NCBI GenBank assembly: GCA_003116995.1
Contig: BDSL01000002.1
Coordinates: 248,001 to 312,000 of the forward strand
Direction: 5' to 3'
From: Yamagishiella unicocca
Lineage: Eukaryota; Chlorophyta; Chlorophyceae; Chlamydomonadales; Volvocaceae
Length of the DNA: 64,000 bases
The notes under the pieces are model-generated. The model ran no database searches. It worked only from the letters and a program-made list of their open reading frames with translations, and was not told the origin of the DNA. Positions within the stretch are counted from its first letter, which is position 1; each line of letters starts with the position of its first letter. Of the stretch, positions 17,901-60,562 are shown one piece after another. The position numbers were made by a program, and so were the translations under genes.

Positions 17901-19189
17901 CCTAAGGGCCCTGACTCACGTCTCAGCCAGGAGCGCTTCTGAATAGCCCCTCCGGTTGTGCTCCGCCACCAGCCAGCTCTCAAAGACGGAGAAGAGTAGG
18001 CTAGTGGAGACGCCGCCCAGCGCCCGGCCAAGCATCAGCACCCAATACGTGGAGCTGTGCTTGGTTGCGCAGGAGAGGCAGTACGTGGCAACATAAGCCA
18101 GAGAGGCGCTCCGCCGGCCGCTGAGAAAAGGGACAAAGGGATTCAGGGTTGAACGAGGATTCACGAGGATCCAAAGAGCGGGTTTTATCACCTGACCACA
18201 CAGGCAGTTCGTGCACGATGCCCACAACAAATGTAGAAGTTCGAAGGGATGGAAGCCACAGCGCAAGGAACTATTCACCATGGTCTCTAGCACGTGCAGC
18301 AAGTACTGACAGGACTCAGGCGAGGGGGCCCAGCGGCGTGCAATGATAGCGGCACATGAATATAGTGATTAATCGTAGGCAGTGGCATAGTGAGGATCGT
18401 ACGGGTACGGACGGCTAGCATGTAGACAAAAAAGGCACATGCGCTGGTACTGCAAAAATGCATACTATGCTGCCATGCGAACCCGAGCCAAAAACCCGAG
18501 CCGCACGCTGTACCCGTCCTCACATGATATCTGCCAGCGCTCCCACCACGGTGCCGAACACCAAAGAGCTCCCAAAGCCCATTATGAAAAAATGGCCTAT
18601 ATCCCCCACCGTATAGCCGTAGTGCTCGTACAACGCATAGATGTATGGTCCCTGCAGCCAGTCGCCGGCTGCCCGTGCAAGGCAGGCCGAAGCGCGGGAT
18701 CGTTTAGGTTAGGGAGTAAAACTGACTGGTAATCCTCAGAAAATGTTACAACCGTTCGAAACGCAAGGAGATCTGTAAACGTGCGCTCTCCTTGTATGAC
18801 GGGCAAAATAGCGACTACAACGCTAACTTGTTGCACAAAGGCGTACCACAAAAGGACCCCCCCTTTTCAATTACATATAACGTTCCAAAAACCAGAGGAG
18901 TTGGAAGGGTTAACGACAAAGATGGAGGGAGGACGACACAGCCGGACAAAGCGATGTGGGGATACGGGTTGTGTCGGGTTTCTAGACCGAATTGCTTCAT
19001 GACGAACCACTTACCCATCATAAAGCAGAATACTATAAGGTAGTTCGTGCGGAACGCTTTGAACCGCTTTAGGCCCTCTTGATCCGCCAAAGTCGATGCT
19101 GGCTCCAGCTCCTCGGAGCCCGACCGCCCATTCAGCACAACGGCAACCAAAACCAGCACGCCGAACAGGACCAAGTAAAATGCGTCCAT
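14953..19189 (-). CDS. MOT2: MOT2/MFSD5-type molybdate-anion transporter (MFS)
   Basis: Major-facilitator transporter of the MFSD5 family; the Chlamydomonas member MOT2 takes up molybdate. Eight exons, right to left: 19189-19015, 18668-18524, 18120-17920, 17354-17116, 16638-16490, 16081 to about 15915, about 15837-15615, 15207-14953; phases agree wherever both ends are clear. Motifs: FMMAGDWLQGPYIYALYEHY over the first junction, GFGSSLVFGTVVGALADI, then the diagnostic MLGRALGGVSTSLLFSVFES with WLVAEHNRRGYSEALLAE (loop 4/5), SMYTFVFLWTPALSP, and FWPSMMALRAHYVPEELRAT. About 12 membrane spans are expected. The C-terminal tail after YMNTLTLDDR is polar and unconserved. The substrate is inferred from the family. 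Confidence 0.88.
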
Positions 19190-21538: not shown

Positions 21539-23035
21539 TTAGACTCCGAGATTCGATATTAGAACGAAGTGTCAAAGGTTGTCCTCGCGCGGTCTTCAAA
21601 GGTGCGAACGTCGAGTGGCCTGGCAACGTATAAGAGCCTGGATATGCTGTAATATGCTTTGTAAGGCACAGCGCGACTGATGAATATGTGAGTAGCTTGG
21701 TATCACTGTCGTGATGTGACGAAATAAATAAGAAGCACTTTCTCCGGTACTCGTGGCGATGTCGTACATTCGAGACTTGGCTCGTTGGCTGGTGCCGTGT
21801 GGACTCTTGCTCTAACAGAAAATAACGTAAGGAAATAATGTTGGGCATCTGTATCTGATGCTGAGTTGTTTGCCGCCACTGGTTACCTTCGCACCTTCGG
21901 GTGTCGAAGTCAAATCGGCTACACCGTACTGCACGAAAACACTTCAGGTACCTCCGGCCCTTAAAAACACCTGTCTCCTCCGTCTGCATGCCGAGACCGG
22001 GAGGGCGACGTGTGGGACGGGGGAAGGTGTGCAGCCCCGGGGCTTTGCCTCTGGCCTCATACACGCGATGTGCCGGCCCGGCCCGCGCCGCCTGGGTGCT
22101 GACCCGGCACCGCTCTGCTCTCAGTAATCCTACACTCTCAACTCTTCCCCGGTCGGTGGCCCAGACAAAAAAGAGGACAAAAAGGAGGGGCGGGTGCGCG
22201 AATCAATGTATCCCCAAAGCAACTTGCAACTTGGGACGCGCCACCGCGTGAGCGCGATCCCCCCAAAACCGGTCGCTGAGGACATTCCCGTTCGCGAGAG
22301 CAGTGAAAGGCCCTAGCAATCAATTATACGCGAAAGGAGCTCGCGAGGACCGTTTCACTTTCAAACTAAGCTTCGCGTCGACCACGCGTCCGAGGGCCCT
22401 ACGTCCGCTTCGAAACCAATTTTCGGAGCAAAGTCCGAAAAGTACACCATTTGGGGTTGCATACTGATGGCAAACCTGAACGCGTGCGGGAACACATAAT
22501 CGGCTGGCACAACCGCAATTGAGCTCACCCTCGGTTACCCACGGTCACGGTGTTGCGCGAGCTTCCGATTAAATCTGTGTATTACATGGCAAAAGCTGTA
22601 CGCGTCCCCGTACACACCAGACCGCCACGGCACAGCGAACCGTGTAGACATTTGCTGACAGCACGAACGTTGTACGAGCGTAAGGCCCGAGCACTTTTGC
22701 TATTGTTGCACATGTGCCAACTTATCGTAATCAGCGACAATAACTAGGGAGGATAAGCTAGCTGAAAACGACCAGGACCGCAACCCCCACCGTTCACTCC
22801 CCAGTTGCAAACACATTCGACTTGATGTGCATAGCGCAATGGCAACAACTGCTGCAGGATGTCCGACCTGTTCCGTCAGATGAGGACTTCAGGCAGGATT
22901 GTCTGGCGCCTTATTGCGGCACCTGGAGGCACCTGGCAGCATCACTCCTGTCGAGTCCCTGGTCATATAATTCCAGTGCTGCTCCGCCAATTGTAAAAAG
23001 GAGCCCCTAAAACAGGTTCCTTCAAGCGCGCGCAT
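21539..23035. other. Intergenic, no gene seen
   Basis: No motif-bearing frame on either strand. The 22.1-22.4 kb part is mixed purine-rich and GC-rich and may be a promoter for the tentative minus-strand gene at 21.5 kb. Confidence 0.35.
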
Positions 23036-24060
23036 TTAGTAGTTGGGGCCTGGTAGCCGGCATGTCCGCCTCCCGAGCACTGCGCATTTAAGGACTGACC
23101 GCAAGTACCGGCGCACCACCTCAATAACGACCCACTCCAGCACCGCCAGCGCCGGGCCCTCTCGCCGCATCGCCTCCACGCGCGCCACCTCGGCCGGCAG
23201 GCAAACGCGCACTGCCACCGGCACACGCAGGCGCGCAAATATCATGGGCAGCCGCACCATCATGTCGGGTGCGGGGTCCAACCACCATCATGTCGGGTGC
23301 GCGGTACGACCACCGCTCAGCCGCTGCCGGGTGCTTGCGCGGGTCCGCGAAGGCGATGAGCAGGCAGGCCGCGCCCCCCATGTACGGCAACCAACAGGTG
23401 AGGAACTCGGCCCGCTCACAGACGGGCACGCCAAAACCCCCCAGTGAGCGTACAGCCAGGTCTCCACGTCAGCGCCCGCAACGCAGAACAAGCGCGCCGA
23501 GTCGCACTCGGGCAGCGGCAGAGAGGTCGGCTGGTGTGGGGCCCAGGCCCTGGAGCAGGGGCACGGCCATGGGCCAGCAGGGCCGCGGTATCGGCCGCCC
23601 CGCGGCCCAAGCCTTGTTGAGGGCAGCCACTGCCGCCAGTTGCTCGAGAAAGCCACCCCCCTGGCTGCTGCTGCAACGCACGGGATTCCGCAGCCCGCCC
23701 GTGTCCGGCCACATCAGCCCATACACCACATCGGTGCTGCCGCTGCTGCTGCTGGCGCCGCTGCTTGTCCGCTGGAGCCGCCTCGCACCACCGCCACACT
23801 CCGTCCACAGCTCCTCCCGTCCCATCGCCCCCTAGTCGCCTTCCAGTACCCCGCCCACCTTCAGCGCCTCTCATGGCAAGTAGCTGTACTGTCGCCCGCC
23901 CCCACTAGCCGGGTGCGCCAGGTTGTCGTCCGGCGCTGCCTGCACGCGCCACTCCGCGCTGCAACCGCCCCGCACGCCGTCCGTACAGTCGAGTCACGGC
24001 ACCAGGCTGCTGGAGGCCCAGCGTTCCTACGGCGTCGAGCTCACGACCATGAAGGTAGGC
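23036..24060 (-). pseudogene. Degraded or misassembled coding region, family unknown
   Basis: Minus-strand coding-like peptides occur in order but in different frames: DVVYGLMWPDTGGLRNP with FLEQLAAVAALNKAWAAG, then LFCVAGADVETWLYAHWG, then ERAEFLTCWLPYMGGAACLL with ADPRKHPAAAERWSYRAP, then LPMIFARLRVPVAVRV with ALAVLEWVVIEVVRRYLRSV and a stop at 23036. Between blocks two and three the frame changes at a G6 run (about 23443) with no splice site. Between blocks three and four it changes at a 19-nt direct repeat spaced 28 bp apart (28 is not a multiple of 3). It is either a pseudogene or carries two sequence errors. It lies just downstream of the RING-kinase-UBL gene. Confidence 0.4.
23255..23301. 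repeat. 19-nt direct repeat spaced 28 bp
   Basis: CACCATCATGTCGGGTGCG occurs at 23255 and again at 23283. It looks like a recent 28-bp tandem duplication and shifts the minus-strand reading frame of the coding-like region around it. Confidence 0.8.
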
Positions 24061-24109
24061 TGGGCGGGCCAGACGCAGATACCGGGCCGGCCGCCTCTCA
24101 ATGGCAGCA

Positions 24110-27100
24110 CTACCGTATGAACACCTCACAGCCGTCGCCAATGCCATAGTGGCACAGTTCAAACTGGTCATCGAGCAGCTTAAGCTTGTAGATGAGTCGC
24201 ATCTGGTTGAACGGAATGCCCTCCGCCTCCTCGATCTGCGCAGAAGAGGAAATGGGAGATGGACGGGAGCGGTCGGTAAGTCACTGCGGGGCCGAAGTCC
24301 AAATCCTGGAAGCAGTGGTGCCTCACTCACCGCAGCCTTCAGGTATTCAACCTTCCACATCTCGTGCGCCGGCAGGACGAAGTTCTTGTTATGGGTGCGG
24401 ATCACCAGTTGCATGTTCGGGCCATCCATGCCGCGCATGTGGCACACGCCACCAGCACGCACGAGGTTGGCGCCTAGCAGCGCCGGAAGGTGGCGGCGCT
24501 GGTCGTCAATCAGCAAGTCGAAGTTGACTACCTTGGACATGGGCAAGTTGGCCGGCACCGCCTGCGCGGCTTCCCTCTGCAGAGCAGGGTTGTGGGCGGG
24601 GCGGGTCATGCGGTGCTCATATTCAACATGTGGAAATCGACGGGACAGAAAAAAGGGGAAGAAGCAAACGAAAGCCCAGCCCTGCCCGATCCAACGATTG
24701 CACCGAGAGGAGACTGCCCAACGCGCACCGTCCCAGCTCCGCCCAGCCCAGCCCCCCGTACCAAACCAGAGGAAAGGAAAACCCAAAGAAGCCCTGCACT
24801 GACTCCACCGCTGTACGAGGGTTACGGCCGACCGCTGGAGACGTCCGCCGGCGCTTTGCCACCGGCATGGAGGCGCGGAAGCCCACGCAAGCAATGAGCA
24901 GGCACCCTAATTCGCAGAGCCCACCCGTTTTGCTAAGCGCAGACGTACCTACGCGCGGAAATGGAGGGCGGCAAGTGGGGACGAAAGGCACAAAAGTACG
25001 TTGGGTAATGGCGCGGAATGTACGACGGGAAGGGCACAGGCAGGGCACACAGAGGCCGATACGTTACCGGTGGACACGCCGGGAGAGACTTGAGATATGT
25101 GCGCTCACAGCTGAAGCACGCGGTGCGATGGGAGCCCGTACGGCGGGAGGTACGGCGACGGAGGGAACCGTAATGCTACTGAGTCCACCGGGGTCGGGAT
25201 ATCGGTGTGTCGGCATACACGTGTCAAAGGGCATTGGCAATGGTACGGCGCCGCAACATGCCCGCAGACCTGGCCTACGGATGCCGCGGCTGTCCCTACG
25301 TCCCCCTCCGGTACCAAACCAAATCCTCCACGCCGCCCCCGCTCCAACCCGGCCCTACCCCCAGATCTGAGCTGCTGTACGTGTAGTCCACCTCGACGTC
25401 GTCGATCCTGACGGCGCCCGTGCGGCTGTGCAGCACCACGGTAGTGCGCGGCTTCGGCACTCGGGTGTCCACCACCACCAGCATCCGCGGCCTTACCTCG
25501 CCAGTTCCCTTCAGCGCGGACGAAAACAGCAGCAAGGAAGTGGTTACTTGTCCACACGGCTGCACCTGCTGTTGCGTCCTGAAACTGCCACCACGCAGCC
25601 AACTCCGGCACATGCATGCACCCGCGTGCCCGTAGCTTACTGAAAAAAGCCTTCCGCAACTATCCAACCTGAGCAACACTCGGGATCTAGTTTCGGCGAT
25701 GCTTTGGAGACGCTTTCCGCTTACCGCGACACCCGCATTCGCTCACCTTGTCCATCATGGACCGCAGCCGGATGCCCTCCCCAGTCATCTGCGCGTCTGT
25801 CAAGTCAATGAAGCCACCGTCGCCCCCGCCGCTCGTCATCGCCCTCAGCAGGTAGCGCCGGAACTGCCGGGGCACCAGCAGCTGCGCGGCGGCCCCCAGC
25901 AGCAAGCCCAGGTGCAGCCGTGCATAGACCTCCAAGGACCCCTGCACCTCAATGCGGCTGTCGGTGTCAACGTCCATCAGGGGAAGGTGCAGCACCACCG
26001 CCGCGGGCTTCACGATGCCCATCGTTGAGGGGTCCGATAGGTGCAGGTGCAGCTCCATTGCCCGGGACGGAGACGCAACCGCGGCCACTCGTGCCTGGCC
26101 TCGGGCCCCAGCATCCGCACCAAGGCCGTTTGCTTGCTCCTGGGCCTGGGCTCGAGCCCGAGCATGAGCAGCAATTGCCCGCGCCTCTTCGAGCTGAGAT
26201 AAGATGGGGCCCTGAGGAGACGTCGGCATCGGCTGCGCCGCGGCGGACAGCGCAACAGGGGGCGCGACGGCAGCTGCTCCAGGCGGAGCTTGGACCCCGC
26301 TCCCAGCCCTGGAGGCGGTCTGGATTGATCTCAGCAGCTGCTGTCCCGCAGTTGGCGGTGGGGCAGTCGGTGTGGCAAGCAGCGCAGCAGCTGGTGCAGC
26401 CGGTGGCACAGCGGGTGTTATAAAGGAGAACGCGCTGGCAACTATGAAGGGCCCCGGAGCAGCCGGCGCTGACGCAGCCGGTGCAGCCGGCGGCGGTGCA
26501 GCCGGTGCAGCGGGCTGTGTAAAGGATGGTGGCTTATTCTTGGACCCTGACGCGGCCAACTGTGGCTGATATGCAGGCGGCGCAACGTAAGAGGATGCTG
26601 GGGCTGCCCTCGCCACAGGGACAGGCGCCGCAGCTGCCGCTCCCCCCAGTGCTGTCGGGCCGTAGACCTCCTGCAGCCTCTGCTCGAGCTCCCACGTCAA
26701 AGCCGCCAGGGCCGCCGCCGCGCTGGGTCGGTCGCCCGGGTCGGGTCGCAGGCAGCGGCCCAGGAGGCTGTGCAGCGCGGGGGCCAGGCCCGGCGGCAGC
26801 TCGGGCGAGCGGCGGTGCACCCCCACCTGTGATATGAAGCAGGACCGAAGGCGGTAAGCTTGGCCCCGCAACTGAAAGATGCGGAATGGGGTGTCTTGCT
26901 ACTGCTTACGCGCAACCCAAGCGACGACGTACGCCTGCAACCAGCCCAGGCGCAAGCTTACAGCACCAAGGGTTCCGGCAGCGTAACCCTTGCCTTGCGG
27001 GCCGTGAGACTCCATATCCTGCCCGCAGGACCCCCCTGCCCTGCCCCGGAACGCCGCCCTGCCGCCCACCTGCATGGTGATCTGTCCCATGTTGAGGCCC

Positions 27101-28709
27101 GACCACGGCGGTCGGCCCGTCATCGCGTGCAGCAGCGTGGTGGCGAAGGCCCACATGTCGCTTTGCGGCGTGATGGCATCGGCCTCGCCGATTGCAAACT
27201 GCTCCGGCGCCCTGCGGGACGGGGCGTTGACGTGCGGCGAAGTGCGAGGGGTTGCGGGCGGGCATCGCGGTTCCAATGTCCTCGGGAGTCTCCTGGGTTG
27301 ACACATCGCACGTCCCCGCAACATTCCCGCCTTGCGCTCACACATATTAGGCTGGTGAATGCAATACGGTATTACGTATGCTAGGTTACCTTGGCCCCCC
27401 GCGACCCACATGTAGTTGACGGAGCCTTGCGGCGAGGTGACCAGGTGCTGCCCGATCGTGGCGGTCACGGCGCGCCCGATCCCGAAGTCGCACAGCAGCG
27501 GCGTGCCCGCGTCGTCGAGCAGCACGTTGTCCGGCTTTAGGTCCGCCATCACGATGCCGTGCGCGTGCAGCTCCACAAGACCTCGCAGCAGGTCCACCGC
27601 CAGCAGCACCGCGCGGCCGGCGGGGAGGCAGCCGCCTGCGGGCGCGGAGTGAGGGAGATCGGCGGGGGAGGGAGGGCGGCGGGAGGCAGCCCAGCCGTGG
27701 GTACTGTGCTTGGTGCCTCGGTGCACCTCGCGTGCCCCAAGACAGGCCACGTCGGCTGACGCTGTGGCAAAAGCGCCGTCGCATCCGCCGCGCTGCAGGC
27801 TTTCGCCGCTTGCGTTACTTTTTAGGTTAAAGGAATACCTCACGTTGGAAACGCATGTGCACCGCCGCGTGTGTGCGTATGCTGTTCACATAGGCGTCTG
27901 CGGACCGCCATCATTCGGGCAATGAGGGCTGCACCCGACTGCACACCGGCTGTAGAGCCGCGGCGCACCGCCCCCCTCCCGCGGCCGTCCTCTCGCACCC
28001 GGCTGTCGCGCCAGGTGCTGCATGAGGCTGCCCGGGTACTTTGGCATCACCAGCGCCAGCCGCCCGTCCTTGACGGTGACGCCCAGCAGCCGGACGGTGT
28101 GGCGGCACACGGACGACACGCGCGCCAGCAGCCGCACCTCGCGCTGCAGCGCGTCACGGACGGCCGGCGGTCCGGACAGCTGCAGCAGCTTGACAGCAAC
28201 CTGCAGGCAGGGCCGTCGGGGCGGTAGAGGTCAGCTTGGGCTGGCTGGGAGGAACGAAATGGGTCCTGCGGGCTTAGGTGCCTGTGCTTCGGATGCTTGT
28301 GCCATGTCCTTTCTCACCGCACCTCGCGGCTGCGGTAGTAGCCGAGCACCACGCGCCCTGTGCCGCCGCCGCCTAGCTCCACAGCCGTGAGCTGCAGGTC
28401 GCCGGCAGACAGGACCAGGGCCGAAGCGTGCGGGCCAGTTCCCTTGCTACCGCCGTCGGGCAGCACACCGTGCTGGCGCAGGAGCTCCTCCTCTGGGCCC
28501 ACAGATCCTGGCCCCTCGGCCTCGATCACCTCGAGCAGCGCGAAGTTGCGCGGTAGGGTGGAGCGGTCGGGCGGCAGCGGTGCGCGGCAGAAGGGGCATG
28601 CCTGCAGCTGGTTCACGCATGAGCGGCACACGGTGTGGCCGCAGGGCGCTAGGAGCGGGGACCGCTCCTGGGCGTCGAACACATCGAGGCAGATGCTGCA
28701 GGACACCAT
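24110..28709 (-). CDS. RING finger - protein kinase - ubiquitin-like fusion protein
   Basis: Predicted E3 ligase with a kinase domain and a C-terminal ubiquitin-like fold, about 871 aa. Exons: 28709-28323, 28200-27999, 27635-27410, 27211-27070, 26826-25747, 25565 (or 25568)-25359, 24576-24331, 24235-24110; all in phase. The C3HC4 RING is at residues 4-43: CSICLDVF, CGHTVCRSC, CPFC. The kinase begins EVAVKLLQLSG (ATP lysine), then HGIVMADLKPDN (catalytic loop, HRD arginine replaced: non-RD), CDFGIGRAV, APEQFAIGEAD and WAFATTLLHAMTGRPPW. Exon 5 finishes the kinase and adds an Ala/Pro-rich linker. The last two exons give a complete ubiquitin-like fold: MQLVIRTHNKNFVLP, IEEAEGIPFNQMRLIYKLKL, then GDGCEVFIR and stop; no GG tail. 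The 780-bp intron before the UBL exons is the weakest link, so two genes remain possible. Confidence 0.75.
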
Positions 28710-32597: not shown

Positions 32598-35500
32598 ATG
32601 ACGCAGGCGGTTGCCCTTGGCGCCATGATTTGGGGTCTCAAGGTTTGCCTGCAATACATCGACCCATATCGCGAACAGCGTGAACAGGTGAGCGGCGGAC
32701 TATTAGGCACAGTCCCGCCTGACGAGACGGGATTTGTGGATCTTCTTCTCTGCGGATCAATGCGCGACATCTTGCATTCCTTATGAGATCAGAGGGATTG
32801 ATGTAGCCTACGGTGAACTATTGCAGGCCAAGAAGCGCGCTTCTTTCCTGAAACAACACCTTGGGCGAGCGCTGGAGCTGAACGAGTTCGAGCAGCTATT
32901 GGCCGCCCAAGTGATGAACCCCGATCACATCGAAGTAGAAATGCAGGACGTTTCCGGCCTCGAAAAGATTGTGGCAGACCTGGTGCGTGGGTTTCGGGGG
33001 AATAGGCAGGTGGAGCGGGTTTTCGGCGGGAATAAAGGGAAGGCGGTAAAATATTTATCCGTATACGCAACAGCTGGACATGTCAGTGTGCATACAGGCT
33101 GCGGGCTTGACTACTAGCTTGTAGCAGCGTGTGTAGCATGCGTCCTGCACCGCCATAACAGCGTGTTATCACCTCCCTGTTGGTCCTACGGAATCCTCAG
33201 GAGACAAAGGTGCTGTATCCCTTGATGCGGCCTGAGCTGTATCGCACAACGCTGTGGAAGCAGACCAAAGGCGTGCTGTTGTAAGTGGGGATTGGCGCAT
33301 TTGCCTGACTGAAGCTAGATAGGGCACCTTAGATCTAGTGTACGGTGATTGAGAAGCGAACAACAGTGGGGTACCATGCAACCAGAACCATAGTTGTGCT
33401 GTTTCGGGTGACTGACGGTGTGTTTTCTTAGGAACATGAAGCTGTTGGGGCAGGCAGCCTGAATGCACAGCCAAGATATCGGCACTGGTTGATGCAGGCT
33501 GTTCTAGGCTCAAGAGGAACTACCCGTACATGTATGCCGGCGTTTCGCCATGTTTTAACCTTCCCTAAGCTGTTTGGACGATTGGTTCCTTTTCGAGCCG
33601 CACACTTATCTCCTTCCACGTATTGCCGACACCAAATGCAGGTACGGACCTCCGGGAACTGGCAAGACCATGCTTGCGAAGGTAATCGCTGACTGAGGCA
33701 GGGTATGCTGTTGTATGGGGTATGCCGAAGGCCTCATGCTTATGCGAAACTTGTCGCCATGCACCGTTAGTACGCGTGTATCGGATGCTCCCAGGATGAG
33801 TGGTTTTGTCAAATGTGCCTCCCTTCGATCCGTAATCTTGTGGTCCCCAGGCCCTGGCGAAGCAGTCTAGCTGCTTCTTCCTCAACATCACTGCATCCTC
33901 CATTATGAGCAAGTGGCTGGGAGACGCCAATCGCCTGGTGCGGGCTGTTTTCAGCCTGGCAGCGAAACTGCAGCCCTGCATCATCTTCATCGGTACGTTG
34001 TCTGGGATGCCGGGATGTCGGTACGGTCATCCCGCTTACCGTATTGGCGGCGGCATCGGTGTGTACTCCCATGTGGGTTTGTTGCTGCCCGATGTGGCAA
34101 TCCTCGGGCTTCCAGCATTTGTCGCGCAGGGTCACCAGTTGTCGCATTCCTTCGAGCACCAAAACTTTGTGCATAGAGCTGTTAATGGTCCATCTAGACA
34201 GCGTAGCTTTGCACTAGAGCCTCTGTCTCGATGCCACCGTTTGCACGTACAGTTGGCTTGTGCGTTGACTGTAGGATTGTCCTAGGGAGTCCCCACAGTT
34301 GCCTCCTTGCTAAGTTGTCTTGCTTCATACCAGTGCTTCTTTCTCCCGTTCCTACAGACGAAGTCGATGCCATGCTAGGAAAGCGCGGCGCCAGCAGCGA
34401 GCATGAGGCCATGCTGCAGGTCAAGACCGAGTTTATGCAGCTGTGGGACGGTATGGAGTCGAGCCGTGGGCAGGTGGGAAGAGGCAATGGATTTGAGCCC
34501 ATGACATCCCTAATGGGTTGACGTCTGGGGGGTTGGTATAAAAACCGTTTACGCGACAAGGACAGGATAGTTGGCGCGTGGGGGGAGGGAAAATGGTTTT
34601 GTCGCTCGTCACGACGGTTTGAGGTGAGTTGATGCACAGATCATCGTTCAAAGCTGCATATTACATCTGAGGTATCTGCTCTGGTCAAATATCGGGGTGT
34701 CTGTGTTGCACTTGAGCAAATGCTAGAACCATATGGCCTGTTTGGAAGTCGCAGCCTGCTTACGATGGCTAGAGCAACATAATAAGTTCTCAACGGAGCG
34801 GTGCATTGGCACTGGGCAGCCGTTCGGTATGTTACCATAAAAGCGAAGGTAACATTTGGCCAACTTGACGAAACATGGGCCGCAAGTACTTCTTCGCATT
34901 CAGTGTCATGACCAACTACCGGTACGCCTGCAATATTATATAACGTTATGCCATTGCCTATACCTCCCCGCCAGCGCGTGGTGGTCATGGGTGCGACTAA
35001 TCGGCCCTGGATGGTGGACGAGGCCGTGCTGCGGCGCTTCACGCTGATGTATGAGGTGGGTATGCTTCCATATGAATGTTGTACGAATTGAGGCCAACCT
35101 CGTTTCGTGACAGGCTTCATGTCAGTGTTATCGAACTCGGTTTGTTGTCGGGTGCATACAGCGGCGTGGGCTTGCGGTTGGTAGACAGTTTTTTCTGTAA
35201 CCCTCTTGAGTCATTGCCTGGTCAATCATTTTCGCAGGTTGGCCTGCCCAACACGTCCCAGCGCAAAGCTATCTTATTGGGGTATCTACGCAAGCACAGC
35301 TTGGAGGTGCCCAACAGTGTCGCCGAAGAGCTAACGCTCGAAGACCAGGGGCACGCCAGACAGGTGCCAGGAACAGCGAGCCCTGCCGCAGCTCAGAACG
35401 GCGATGGCCAGAACAACAGCAGCAGCGGCCTCATTGGACGCAGCGCCGTCGAACGCATCGCAGATGCGACGGAGGGCTTCAGCGGCAGCGACCTTTTGGA

Positions 35501-36032
35501 ACTCTGCTCGCAGGCTGCACAACGAGTCCTAGCTGAGCATCTTCACGAGCTGCAGTCATCGTGAGTTAGGCATAGGGTTTTGCTTGTAACCATTGAAAAC
35601 GGATACAATTGGTTTCCTTTGCGCCGGTGTTTGTGAGGTATGTCAGTGATTGTTTCAACAAACACAATCTCTACATTCTTTTGCGGTGCATCGCAGGGAC
35701 GCGACTGGCGAGCAGGCGCAGAGCATGAGGCCACTGGGCTATCGGGACCTGGAGGAAACGCTACAACACGTCCGCCCATCGCTACACAGGGCCGACGATT
35801 ACAGCCGGGTATGCATATTGTGTATCGGCAATTGTGTATACTTTTCTCAACGTTTTATGTGGACTTGGAAGAAGGCGGGTGGCCTTACCTACGCATGTGG
35901 CTACTATACTTGTGAACCTTATTATCTCTCCCTCAGGCAACATCAAGCAATGGAACAGGAGCTGGTGGCGGACTGATGACACCGGCAGACATTTCGGCGG
36001 CTATTGCATTGCTTCTGCAGATGCGAGGCTAA
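32598..36032 (+). CDS. ATAD1/Msp1-type AAA ATPase
   Basis: Mitochondrial outer-membrane/peroxisomal AAA ATPase that extracts mislocalised tail-anchored proteins. Ten exons: 32598-32687, 32827-32982, 33201-33280, 33642-33681, 33851-33992, 34358-34473, 34975-35055, 35238-35560, 35697-35808, 35937-36032; every phase matches, 411 aa. The N-terminus [20 protein letters not shown] is a signal-anchor. Motifs: [18 protein letters not shown] (linker), [13 protein letters not shown] (Walker A), [19 protein letters not shown] (pore loop region), [15 protein letters not shown] (Walker B), [20 protein letters not shown] (sensor 1/arginine finger), then [15 protein letters not shown]. Exon 8 has a polar insertion ([16 protein letters not shown]), and the C-terminus carries an extra Gly/Ser tail. 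The start at 32598 was chosen because it begins the anchor; 32452 is possible. Confidence 0.92.
34538..34581 (+). repeat. 44-bp dispersed repeat, copy 1 (ATAD1 intron 6)
   Basis: Matches 62815-62858 at 41 of 44 positions, with the shared core AAAACCGTTTACGCGACAAG. The G-rich lead before it is also similar. Confidence 0.85.
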
Positions 36033-56800: not shown

Positions 56801-59800
56801 CGGTTGCGCTATGTGGCCGAGGCGCCAGGTTCGAGCGCGTCTTCGGCCCGGGCCTGAGGCGGCAGCGGCCGGCGGCGGCGGGAGAGGGCGGCGCTGGGCT
56901 GGATCCGGCGGCAGTGCCGGGGCCGGAGCCCTCGCTGCCCGATGGCACGCTGGAGGTGTCCCGCGCGGCGCTGTCCAACATGCTGGGCAGCGTGGGATAC
57001 TTCTACGGCAGCTCGCTGGTCAGTGCGGGGCCCGGGGGAGGTTGCAAGGAAAAGCCGTGTATGAAAGGGAGCAGGGGGGGAGGCGCGGGAGACGGGTCGG
57101 AGTCGCAGTCGAGTGCGGCGCGGTGCGGCGTTAGCAGGTCGCGGGCACGGGCCGCTGGCGGGTCTCGGTGGCAGTGGGGCTGGAGGCAAGGCGGAAGCAC
57201 GCGACTCCGCGTTACGGGGGGAATGGTGTGATGCGGATGACTGCAGCAGGCAGGCGGCTCCCTCCGCGCTGGGCCGGAGGGCGTATGCTTTCTAGTTCCT
57301 TGTCGCTTGCTTGCCCGCCCTCACTCACTCTCCCTCACCCGCCGTCCCTGGTGGCTCCACGCCCGGTGGCTTTGTGTCCGGCGGCAGGTGCGCACGGGTG
57401 GCTCCGGCTCGGAGCCCCAGCTGTACTGGCCCGCGGCGCTCTTCACCGCCGTGCCCAGCCGCAGCTTCTTTCCGCGCGGCTTCCTTTGGGACGAGGGCTT
57501 CCATCAGCTGCTGGTGCAGGTGGGTGCAGGGGTGTGGGGAGTAAGCGTCGAGGACGGAGCGGTCTTGCAGCCAGCCGTAAGGTGATTGCTGGTTTGCAGT
57601 CAGCCACCACCAAAATGTGAAAACGGTGTCAACACCGCTACCTGCTGCAACGGCGGCACGGCGGCTGCGGCAGGCCAGCAGGGCAAGCGCCCCTCCTTTC
57701 CCACTCTTCCCCCTCCCCGTGTAATCGGTCTTGCATCTCACCCGCCTCACGAACCAAACCGCCTGCCCCACCGCCCGTTGGCGGCAACGACCCGCCTAAC
57801 CGCCTCCGCAGAAGTGGGACCCCCAGCTCAGCCGGGACATGATCGCCCACTGGCTGGACCTCATGAACAGCCAGGGCTGGATACCCAGGTGGGGCTGAGG
57901 CATCTACGCCGCGCGCTGACCCCACACCGCCTGCTATGACATGCTCGCGCCCATTCGGCTCCTTTTGTCGCGGCTGCCGGTGGTGTGGCTACAGCGGCGT
58001 GACCTGTGTGCGTAACGCCCCCACACTCTCCGTCTCGTGGTCGCCGCCCGCGCCCCCCCGTCCACTGGCAGGGAGCAGATCTTGGGTGAGGAGGCGCGCA
58101 TGCGCGTGCCGGCGGAGTTCGTGGTGCAGAACCCAAGCCATGCCAACCCGCCGTCGCTGTTCCTGCCCATTGCCAAGATGGCGGCGCAGCTGGTGGCGGC
58201 GGCGGCAGAGCGGGCTGCCGGCGCAGGTACGGTCAGCGCCGTGTGTTATGGATGTGTAATGGGAATACTGATCCCGGGGATGGGAGTTGTGTTCGTCTCA
58301 GTGCGAGCTAGGCCTCAGGTGGTGGTGCGGCCGAAGCGGGAGGGAGTGTGGGGCGCAAAGCTTGGTGAGGTATGCGGGCGCGAGGTGCGCGGCGACGCAC
58401 CCACAGCTGGGGCGGCAGTAACGCCAGCGCCAACCCCTTGCTCGATAGCTACCCGCATGAGCGGTGCAAACTCTCGAAACGTATCGCGCCGCCGCGCTGC
58501 TTGGAGCCATCCACACCCCTGGCCGTGGGTTCGCGGACTTATTTCATACCCCCACATTTCGGTCGGTGTAAGTTCCACAGCTCCCACTCCGCCTGATCCT
58601 GCCTGGCCCCACCCCACACCCGCACACCGTGCAGCTGCCGCGAGCGGCGGTGAGGAGGAGGAGGAGCTCGCGCGCGTGTCTGCCTTCCTGCGCCGCGCCT
58701 GGCCCCGGCTGGAGGCGTGGTACAACTGGTTCAACACGACGCAGGCCGGGCCGCTGCCCACCAGCTTCAGGTGGGTGCGAGCAGGGCAGGGTTTAGCAGG
58801 GCAGGGCATGAGAAGCAACCCAACAAACCAGCGGTGGTTCGCCCCCGCTCCAGCAGCGCCCGACCCAAGCCCGGGCTGCGGTTCCCGGCGGCCCACCACC
58901 GTGCTGCGTCTCCGTCGCTGCAGGTGGCACGGCCGCGACCCCCTGGCCTCGTCGGAGCTGAACCCCAAAACCCTGACCAGCGGCCTGGACGACTACCCTC
59001 GCGCCAGCCACCCGGACGCCATCGAGCGACATTTGGACCTGCGCTGCTGGATGGCGCTGGCGTCGCAGGTAGCGTTGTAGACGTGACCTCGTCCTTGACT
59101 GGGGTGGTGAGCTTGAGCCTGGGCTGGGGACTCCGTCTTGCATGGCTGCCGCGAAAGAGCCGCCTGTGGGTTTCGCTAGTACTGATTTGCGCGTGTGAAG
59201 TGCGGGATCCAGTAGCGGCACCTGTAGCGGCATCGGTAGCAGCGCGGTTCATGTGTCGTTGCGGAGCGCGTAGGGCCTGGGGCGTGCTAGTGCGAAAATT
59301 GGACCTTGACCGGCAGACACGCGTCGCCAGCCATTGAGGTGTGCGGCTCAAGCTGAAGGACAACACGCATGTTACCTCTTGCGCATCTGGTCGAGTCTCT
59401 TATGGCGGCCCGCGTGTCACCACCGAACCACCTGTACGCACGCGTCTGCCCTCCCCCTCTTACCCGCCGCCTCGCTGCGCCTGTACGGCAGGCCATGTAC
59501 GACATCGGCTCCTCGCTGGGCCTGCCGCGGCCGGCCGTTGAGCGGTACCGTGCCGCCGCCGCCTCGCTTTCGGACCTGGGGACGCTGCAGCAGCTGCACT
59601 ACGACGAGGCTCGCGGCCGGTTCGCGGACTGGGGCACTCACACGGAGGACGTGCAGCTGGTCACGAAGGTGAGAGCCGCCGGGCCGGGCGCGCACACAGG
59701 CAGGGGGCGAGCTCAGTCACCACGTCAGAGGTTGGTTTGTAAGCGTTTTAGCTTTGGGCCGGCTACAGCGCGCGCTCTGGGGTCTCAGAGCAGCGCCTGA

Positions 59801-60562
59801 CGGTCCCCATTTCCCACTTTAGCCTGCCATGCTCCTCTGCTGCCACTGGCACTCCCGAGTGTCTCCTCCAAACGACTCCTGGGCTTCCCGCGACGCGTAC
59901 AGGTTGTGAACGTGCCGGGCCCGGACGGTCAGCCGGCCCAGCCGCAGACGGTGTCCGAGCGCGCGACCCGGGGCTGGCCGCTGCCGCAGTATGTGCCGCA
60001 GTTCGGCTACGTGTCCCTCTTCCCCCTCATCATGAAGCTACTGCCGGTCGGGGAGAGCGCGGCGGCAGCAGCGGCGGCCGGCGAAGCCGCCGCCGGGACG
60101 GGCCTCGACAGCGGCGTGGAGGGAGGAGCTGCGCACAGCGTTGGCGCCGCCGGCGGAGGTGGCGTCGAGCTGACGCTGCAGCAGCTGGCGCTGCTGCAGG
60201 ATGGCTCGCTGCTGTGGAGCCCCCACGGGCTGCGCTCCTTAGCCGTGACGGCGTCGCTCTATAAGAAGCGAAACACGGCGGACGATCCACCCTATTGGCG
60301 CGGCCCGATCTGGATCAACATCAACTATCTGGTGCTGCGCGCGCTGTCACATTACGCAGCCGCCGGCGGCGAGGTCGGCCGGGTCGCTGCCGCCGCGCAC
60401 GACGAGCTGCGGTTGCGGCTGTTGACCACGATTGCCGGTAACTACCAACGGCAAGGATACCTGTACGAGCAGTATGACGACGACACGGGCGGCGGAATGA
60501 GCAGCCACCCCTTCACCGGGTGGACGGCGCTTGTGACCCTGATCGCGGCGCAGGAGTACTAG
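53870..60562 (+). CDS. Processing alpha-glucosidase I (mannosyl-oligosaccharide glucosidase, GH63)
   Basis: ER type II enzyme that removes the outer glucose from the N-glycan Glc3Man9GlcNAc2. Exons: 53870-53900, 53968-54187, 54298-54490, 54702-54851, 55289 to about 55414, about 55540-55609, 55765-55857, 56135-56250, 56509-56602, 56829-57018, 57388-57519, 57812-57888, 58072-58226, 58635-58770, 58924-59068, 59492-59668, 59903-60562. Phases agree throughout, apart from the junction near 55.4 kb, where only a weak GTCGGC donor restores frame. [10 protein letters not shown] leads to a membrane anchor ([17 protein letters not shown]). GH63 motifs: [98 protein letters not shown], then [18 protein letters not shown] at the end. 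An Ala/Gly-rich insert of about 40 residues follows LLPVGE. Confidence 0.92.

What the first reader, a model, noticed from the sequence alone, without database searches (positions are those of the whole stretch)
24110..28709. RING + non-RD kinase + C-terminal ubiquitin-like domain in one gene
Seen: eight phased exons encode a C3HC4 RING at the N-terminus, a full kinase domain, an Ala/Pro-rich linker and a complete ubiquitin-like fold ending at the stop codon. Established: RING-kinase fusions exist (plant KEG), but KEG continues with ankyrin and HERC2-like repeats, not a ubiquitin-like domain. Inference: the protein could couple a phosphorylation signal to ubiquitin transfer and use its own UBL to dock on proteasome or E2 factors. 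The kinase has MADLKPDN in place of HRDLKPDN, so it would not be controlled by the usual activation-loop arginine pocket.
Basis: partly seen in the sequence, partly recalled or inferred. Interest (0 to 1): 0.75.

Follow-up and report, generated by a model that had tools for sequence, protein, structure and literature searches.

The report
Algal RING-kinase with broken ubiquitin-like tail
A green-alga gene really does join a ubiquitin-ligase finger, a protein kinase and a ubiquitin-like domain in one protein, but it seems to end where it does because an older, longer tail after the ubiquitin-like domain has decayed in this species.

Summary
On the minus strand, 28709-24110, eight GT-AG exons encode 852 aa with a RING, a kinase and a C-terminal ubiquitin-like domain (UBL), each above Pfam cut-offs. 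Three Astrephomene proteins have the same order; Tetrabaena and Gonium have kinase+UBL. The reading needs correcting. In those five relatives the UBL ends in GG and runs on into a "KPVI...WGG" tail, 259-290 aa where complete, a ubiquitin-fusion cassette also of Basidiomycota and brown algae. In the window that tail lies behind the stop codon as a fossil (24116-23111) with four stops and four frameshifts, the only copy found in this genome. The kinase keeps 80 of 82 family-invariant residues, the UBL 10 of 21, the fossil tail 56 of 73. The UBL has lost its GG end and most of the Ile44 patch, so proteasome docking is doubtful. A paralogue shows RING-kinase-ankyrin, the KEG order. Best reading: a KEG-like RING-kinase E3 that has lost its ubiquitin-cassette end. 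New variant of a known kind.

The parts
28323..28709 (-). exon 1: start codon, RING finger, first part of kinase N-lobe
   Evidence: intron 1 position shared with the C75 paralogue
28578..28703 (-). C3HC4 RING finger, residues 3-44
   Evidence: Pfam zf-RING_5 33.4 bits, zf-C3HC4_3 32.4, zf-RING_UBOX 32.5, all above cut-off
27999..28200 (-). exon 2: kinase N-lobe with V-A-V-K133
27410..27635 (-). exon 3: kinase catalytic loop MADLKPDN (27549-27526) and DFG
   Evidence: tblastn 73% to P0001
27070..27211 (-). exon 4: APEQ and kinase C-lobe
25747..26826 (-). exon 5: end of kinase, Ala/Pro-rich linker, first diverged middle domain
25359..25508 (-). exon 6: start of a second, diverged ubiquitin-like repeat (by comparison with relatives)
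   Evidence: P0003 790-832 at 25490-25362; model of the relative P0006
24331..24576 (-). exon 7: rest of that repeat and first half of the C-terminal UBL
24110..24235 (-). exon 8: second half of the UBL and stop codon TAG (24112-24110)
24122..24402 (-). UBL, residues 788-849 (interrupted by intron 24330-24236)
   Evidence: Pfam PF00240, 36.8 bits, cut-off 25.4
24090..24101 (-). out-of-frame remnant of the (L)RGG that ends the UBL in relatives
   Evidence: tblastn with P0001 and P0005
23111..24116 (-). fossil C-terminal tail (KPVI...WGG cassette); four in-frame stops and four frameshifts, counting the one at its head
   Evidence: frameshift-aware alignment to four relatives; own-genome search lists the same stretch
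22582..22586 (-). TGTAA, a possible poly(A) signal behind the fossil tail; none in intron 6
   Evidence: 2 found on this strand in 28709-21000 against 2.8 expected, so weak; that TGTAA is the volvocine signal is recalled

Best explanation
It is a volvocine-alga RING-kinase ubiquitin ligase of a KEG-like group. Its ancestor carried a ubiquitin-fusion cassette at the C-terminus: diverged ubiquitin-like repeats, then a UBL ending in GG, then the KPVI...WGG tail. In this species the reading frame was lost at the last strand of the UBL and the tail has decayed, while RING and kinase are kept. Shown by sequence: the exon structure, the three domains, the family-wide order, the fossil tail, the retained residues K133, D228 and D246, and the degraded UBL surface. 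Inferred: the RING recruits a ubiquitin-charged E2; the kinase, with an unusual MAD loop, phosphorylates the ligase or its substrate and so sets when ubiquitin is transferred; the remaining UBL is at most an internal adaptor and cannot be cleaved after GG or conjugated.
For: Domains above cut-off. Same architecture plus GG + tail in Astrephomene P0004-P0006, and kinase + UBL + tail in Tetrabaena P0001 and Gonium P0008 (tails of P0004 and P0008 are incomplete). Tail family: 133 proteins at E <= 0.001 among 7995 scored candidates; 105 of 125 examined hold GGKPV and 119 of 125 a WGG motif of the tail's type. Fossil tail with eight disabling events, found with each of four relatives. No other tail copy found in the own genome. 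Kinase keeps 80 of 82 columns invariant in P0001, P0005 and P0008; UBL 10 of 21 (Fisher p 1e-7), or 10 of 17 without the four columns of the missing end (p 4e-5). Against P0005 and P0008 the window kinase (90 of 109) does no worse than P0001 (82 of 109). Tail columns invariant in P0005, P0123 and P0122: window 111 of 151, P0001 133 of 149, P0121 146 of 151. At the tail's rate of damage about 20 disabling events would be expected in the 2559 coding bases; none is seen. RING-kinase-ankyrin paralogue with introns 1-4 at the same places.
Against: No transcript, protein or assay. Splice sites were chosen by hand to keep the frame open, which biases the zero count. The dead tail keeps 56 of 73 columns invariant in P0001, P0005 and P0008, more than the open-frame UBL (10 of 21, or 10 of 17), so the UBL must have diverged before the tail broke, and kept columns alone do not prove life. 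UBL of window against P0001 (12 of 24 against 21 of 28) differs only at p 0.09. A search with residues 590-852 found nothing at E <= 0.001 among 7994 candidates. The middle keeps 21 of 29 (two relatives) or 12 of 13 (three relatives) invariant columns. The only nucleotide relative fetched, the C75 paralogue, is too distant for dN/dS, which was not run. The models of Tetrabaena, Gonium and C. incerta show no RING, so the RING in the ancestor rests on Astrephomene, Raphidocelis P0007 and the paralogues.
Confidence: 0.63

Rival explanations
1. The whole locus is a young pseudogene. The tail broke first and the rest has not yet collected stops.
For: Eight disabling events in about 1 kb of tail. 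The UBL keeps only 10 of 21 invariant columns. In Gonium P0008 the catalytic Asp and the DFG Phe are already replaced, so the family tolerates loss.
Against: 852 codons open; kinase 80 of 82 invariant columns and K133, D228, D246 kept; all splice sites GT-AG. About 20 disabling events would be expected under equal decay.
Confidence: 0.22
2. One reading: a finished RING-kinase-UBL ligase whose UBL docks on proteasome or E2. Tail loss was adaptive and left a working C-terminal UBL.
For: UBL still scores 36.8 bits and keeps R42, I44 and K48. C. incerta P0002 and P0003 also end after a UBL-like region without GG or tail.
Against: L8, G47, H68, V70 and positions 71-76 lost; UBL far less conserved than the kinase.
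Confidence: 0.1
3. Two genes: RING-kinase ending near 25.36 kb and a separate UBL gene at 24.58-24.11 kb.
For: The 782-base intron 6 (25358-24577) is the longest; no transcript is available.
Against: Three Astrephomene, one Tetrabaena, one Gonium and two C. incerta models join kinase and the UBL region. Exons 6 and 7 join without a phase break. No TGTAA in intron 6 (weak).
Confidence: 0.04

Closest known systems
KEG (KEEP ON GOING), RING-kinase-ankyrin-HERC2-like E3 of land plants
   Same: N-terminal RING followed by a kinase. A paralogue in this genome (C75) has RING, kinase and downstream ankyrin repeats.
   Different: The window gene shows no ankyrin repeats but a UBL. KEG's RING and kinase are named in PMC10286513 (passages); its ankyrin and HERC2-like repeats are taken from the finding and recalled. 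KEG itself was not aligned.
UPPER/PhWD2, RING-kinase-WD40 protein of land plants (PMC10286513, passages)
   Same: RING then kinase.
   Different: Ends in WD40 repeats; the paper reports homologues absent from green algae.
Ubiquitin/UBL-GGKPVI...WGG fusion proteins of Basidiomycota, brown algae and green algae (unnamed family; no Pfam hit over the tail in P0001, P0005 or P0008 at E <= 0.01)
   Same: UBL followed in relatives by the same tail; fossil of it in the window.
   Different: The 120 listed members show no RING or kinase domain in the precomputed Pfam column; the window copy no longer encodes the tail.
Raphidocelis P0007, RING-kinase-TPR
   Same: RING-kinase part 38% identical over 95% of residues 1-380; catalytic loop CADLKPDN.
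   Different: TPR-type repeats and no ubiquitin domain in the precomputed Pfam column.
IKK/TBK1 kinases with a ubiquitin-like domain (IKK in PMC1949818, passages; TBK1 recalled)
   Same: Kinase and UBL in one chain.
   Different: No RING; UBL right behind the kinase (recalled); no sequence kinship tested.

Membership tests
KEG | N-terminal RING finger followed by a protein kinase domain | tested here: met
KEG | ankyrin repeats after the kinase | tested here: not met
   no ankyrin hit in Pfam scan at E <= 1; present only beside the C75 paralogue
KEG | HERC2-like repeats | tested here: inconclusive
   no such Pfam hit, but it was not checked that Pfam models these repeats
UPPER (RING-kinase-WD40) | WD40 repeats at the C-terminus | tested here: not met
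   no WD40 hit
RING-type E3 ligase | complete zinc-ligand pattern | tested here: met
   C-x2-C...C-x-H-x2-C-x2-C...C-x2-C read from the sequence; Pfam RING models above cut-off
RING-type E3 ligase | ubiquitin transfer with an E2 | not testable with these tools
   needs an assay
active protein kinase | ATP-binding Lys, catalytic Asp, DFG Asp | tested here: met
   K133, D228, D246 kept
active protein kinase | HRD His and Arg | tested here: not met
   MAD here; MAD, AGD, AGP, CAD or ALD in relatives
UBL-GGKPVI...WGG fusion family | UBL ending in GG followed in frame by the tail | tested here: not met
   stop before the GG; tail present only as fossil
ubiquitin-like docking domain (proteasome) | L8-I44-G47-H68-V70 surface (recalled) | tested here: not met
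   only I44 kept (alignments; ubiquitin of this genome)

The most novel reading that the evidence does not exclude
In the relatives, and in the ancestor of this gene, a deubiquitinase cuts at GG|KPVI as in ubiquitin-ribosomal fusions. This releases the WGG tail and leaves a RING-kinase whose own C-terminus is a mature diglycine UBL, so that the whole ligase-kinase can be charged by an E1 and attached covalently to targets. The window species is a natural loss mutant of that step that still keeps the RING-kinase.
Probability: 0.08. Interest if true: 0.85.

Novelty: new variant of a known kind. Interest (0 to 1): 0.5.

Why it matters
Few proteins join ubiquitin ligase and kinase in one chain; KEG and UPPER are the plant examples named in the passages read. 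This family shows that green algae have RING-kinases with exchangeable C-termini (ankyrin, TPR, or a ubiquitin-like cassette with a processed-looking diglycine), and the window gene catches the loss of one such end. A 2019 survey of algal ubiquitin fusions reported none in Chlamydomonas beyond the S27a and L40 fusions (PMC6332867, abstract and passages), while UBL-GGKPV fusions, with UBLs that differ from ubiquitin, are encoded in C. incerta (P0123), C. schloesseri (P0126) and volvocine algae.

Tried and rejected
A protein search with residues 590-852 gave no hit at E <= 0.001; the relatives came from residues 1-380. Rfam at gathering scores and ARAGORN gave nothing in the window. Of the 66 ubiquitin-family matches in the genome, eight further places (L009-L016) and the polyubiquitin loci L001-L008 were checked for tail or kinase with seven queries; the printed matches (over 45 bits, or any with P0121 and P0123) are ubiquitin-type only. 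200 kb of flanks, C2:148001-248000 and 312001-412000, hold no second copy: one hit of 40 bits with a kinase piece at E <= 1e-4. Foldseek on the Astrephomene model listed kinases, and linear tetra-ubiquitin over 265-266 columns with low TM-scores. On the UBL-tail model the 50 listed matches look by title and length like ubiquitin or ubiquitin-bearing chains, so the tail's own fold stays unassigned. The sigma-70 promoter scan is not suited to a eukaryote. TGTAA counts are at chance. Rejected: assembly error as cause of the broken tail, because four of the eight events are in-frame stops. Rejected: alternative splicing into the tail, because the homology runs on through those stops.

Literature: ten searches, of which only the listed titles and abstract starts were seen (for example 10 of 148, 10 of 42, 10 of 35,275). 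No listed title or abstract start names a RING-kinase-UBL protein or the KPVI-WGG tail. Searches (Tetrabaena; Astrephomene) returned no paper, so the library is thin here and absence from print is not shown. Of the papers opened only passages were read (PMC11354881, PMC1949818, PMC10286513, PMC8463890), and for PMC6332867 abstract, outline and passages.

For these I lowered the best reading from 0.66 to 0.63 and raised the pseudogene rival from 0.20 to 0.22.
Full report
What is there. The window lies in a 133 Mb genome (contig C2:248001-312000). On the minus strand, eight exons from 28709 to 24110 join in frame to 852 codons. All seven introns are GT-AG, and exon GC3 runs from 0.72 to 0.93. 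Pfam finds a RING at residues 3-44, a kinase at 111-360 and a ubiquitin domain at 788-849, each above its curated cut-off. The loop is M226-A-D-L-K-P-D-N; K133, D228 and D246 are in place.

Is it one gene? A search with residues 1-380 gave 2901 proteins at E <= 0.001 among 7991 scored candidates, 120 listed. Of the top eight, seven are volvocine or Chlamydomonas proteins and P0007 is from Raphidocelis. Astrephomene P0004, P0005 and P0006 (g5236, g5237, g5239, neighbours by number) carry RING, kinase and ubiquitin; Tetrabaena P0001 (68% identical over 85% of the query part) and Gonium P0008 carry kinase and ubiquitin; C. incerta P0002 and P0003 carry the kinase in Pfam terms and a UBL-like end that aligns with exons 6-8. 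The models of P0001, P0002, P0003 and P0008 have no RING; whether those genomes lack it or the models are short was not testable. Contrary result: a search with residues 590-852 found nothing at E <= 0.001 among 7994 candidates.

In P0001, P0004, P0005, P0006 and P0008 the UBL ends in GG (LRGG in three, LKGG and MRGG in the others) and the protein goes on with KPVI; 259, 287 and 290 aa follow in P0001, P0005 and P0006, while P0004 and P0008 are cut short at 80 and 176 aa. Searching with the P0005 tail gave 133 proteins at E <= 0.001 among 7995 scored candidates, 120 listed: further green algae (P0121, P0122, P0123, P0124, P0126), brown algae (Ectocarpus, Ascophyllum) and many Basidiomycota. 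Of 125 examined (those 120 plus the five above), 105 hold GGKPV and 119 a WGG motif of the tail's type; 12 of the 105 have fewer than 40 residues before the junction. The tail is thus a widespread ubiquitin-fusion cassette. No Pfam family covers it in P0001, P0005 or P0008 at E <= 0.01.

The fossil. In the window the reading frame leaves the family frame at about 24115-24127, so the ORF stops at 24112-24110 just before LRGG (24101-24090, out of frame). The rest of the tail follows to 23111 and is broken. A frameshift-aware alignment of exon 8 plus tail to P0001, P0121, P0005 and P0006 gives eight events each time (frameshift positions move by a few bases): frameshifts near 24120, 23525, 23449 and 23275, and stops at 24029, 23996, 23873 and 23834; identity over exon 8 and tail is 169 of 300, 190 of 350, 184 of 324 and 185 of 330. 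One of the stops at 23873 or 23834 falls opposite a gap in three of the four alignments. The final WGG has become WVV. Six-frame searches of the genome with P0005 (45 of 880 candidates scored) and P0121 (28 of 28) find the tail nowhere else; such counts are lower bounds.

Is the rest alive? Columns invariant in P0001, P0005 and P0008: the window keeps 80 of 82 in the kinase, 12 of 13 in the middle, 10 of 21 in the UBL and 56 of 73 in the fossil tail. With two relatives only (P0001, P0005): 129 of 135, 21 of 29, 14 of 32 and 127 of 175. Four of the 11 lost UBL columns are the missing end, which leaves 10 of 17. Tail columns invariant in P0005, P0123 and P0122: window 111 of 151, P0001 133 of 149, P0121 146 of 151. 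Controls against P0005 and P0008: kinase, window 90 of 109 and P0001 82 of 109; UBL, window 12 of 24 and P0001 21 of 28, p 0.09. So the kinase stands out as kept, and the UBL is more altered than the dead tail, which means that it had diverged before the tail broke. Tail damage spread evenly would predict about 20 disabling events in the 2559 coding bases, where none is seen. This estimate leans my way because the exons were picked to stay open; against that, introns 1-4 sit at the same places in a paralogue. I take RING-kinase as maintained and the C-terminus as released, but a young whole-gene pseudogene is not excluded (0.22).

The UBL. Against ubiquitin (ubiquitin of this genome) the window UBL keeps R42, I44 and K48; L8 is missing or His, G47 is L, H68 is F, V70 is R, and it ends there (positions 65-70 counted by eye). 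The surface that usually binds proteasome receptors (recalled: L8, I44, V70 patch) is mostly gone. AlphaFold2 of the Astrephomene relative P0006 (mean pLDDT 74.6) shows a beta-beta-alpha-beta fold at 523-596 before the UBL at 602-672, and a less clear one at 427-516, so the family probably had tandem ubiquitin-like repeats; Foldseek lists linear tetra-ubiquitin among its hits over 265-266 columns, with low TM-scores.

Paralogues. C75:402283-405037 (minus) carries a RING and kinase matching the window gene in four pieces at 44, 65, 50 and 49% identity and, downstream on the same strand, ankyrin repeats above the Pfam cut-off in three ORFs: the KEG order, if they belong to one gene, which was not tested. 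C28:309885-311025 carries a RING and a UBL ending in LGG about 0.8 kb apart, with no kinase match seen between them. C75 reads ALDLKPDH in the catalytic loop; Astrephomene reads AGDLKPSN, Gonium AGPLNPDN. The missing HRD Arg is therefore a family trait and no special feature of this gene.

Mechanism. Shown: parts, order, conservation, fossil. From established family knowledge: a RING of this kind recruits E2~ubiquitin, and an intact K/D/D kinase can transfer phosphate. Inferred: the kinase gates the ligase or primes its substrate. The MAD loop suggests weaker dependence on activation-loop phosphorylation, but EFR, a non-RD kinase, still needs that phosphorylation for signalling (PMC8463890, passages), so this is open.

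Novelty. KEG and UPPER are RING-kinases with other C-termini; PMC10286513 (passages) reports UPPER homologues absent from green algae and names KEG as another RING-kinase. The listings of the ten literature searches showed nothing on the present architecture, in a library that is thin for volvocine genomes (searches returned none). The family is already in databases under automatic names such as 'Mitogen-activated protein kinase kinase 2'. Verdict: new variant of a known kind; interest 0.5.

Noticed in passing
L037 (G000:C75:397500-405600), minus strand: Paralogue with RING, kinase and downstream ankyrin repeats (KEG order) and introns 1-4 at the same places; its ATP-loop is degenerate (LGAWGDCRV) and intron 4 has a GC donor.
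   Followed up: partly
L038 (G000:C28:308000-312000), minus strand: RING finger and a UBL ending in LGG about 0.8 kb apart on one strand, no kinase match between them: a possible RING-UBL gene related to the window gene.
   Followed up: partly
P0008 (Gonium pectorale GPECTOR_5g68): The same family member reads AGPLNPDN and DVG, so the catalytic Asp is lost: a likely pseudokinase in a sister genus.
   Followed up: no
P0121 (Tetrabaena): UBL + WGG-tail protein annotated as 'Ubiquitin-60S ribosomal protein L40', apparently a misnomer: it carries the WGG tail instead.
   Followed up: no
window 58016-60559 (+): Exons of a glycosyl hydrolase family 63 protein (Pfam 166 and 174 bits).
   Followed up: no
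window 17919-18368 (-) and 35076-35561 (+): Exons matching MFS_5 sugar transporters (88 bits) and an AAA+ lid domain (33 bits).
   Followed up: no
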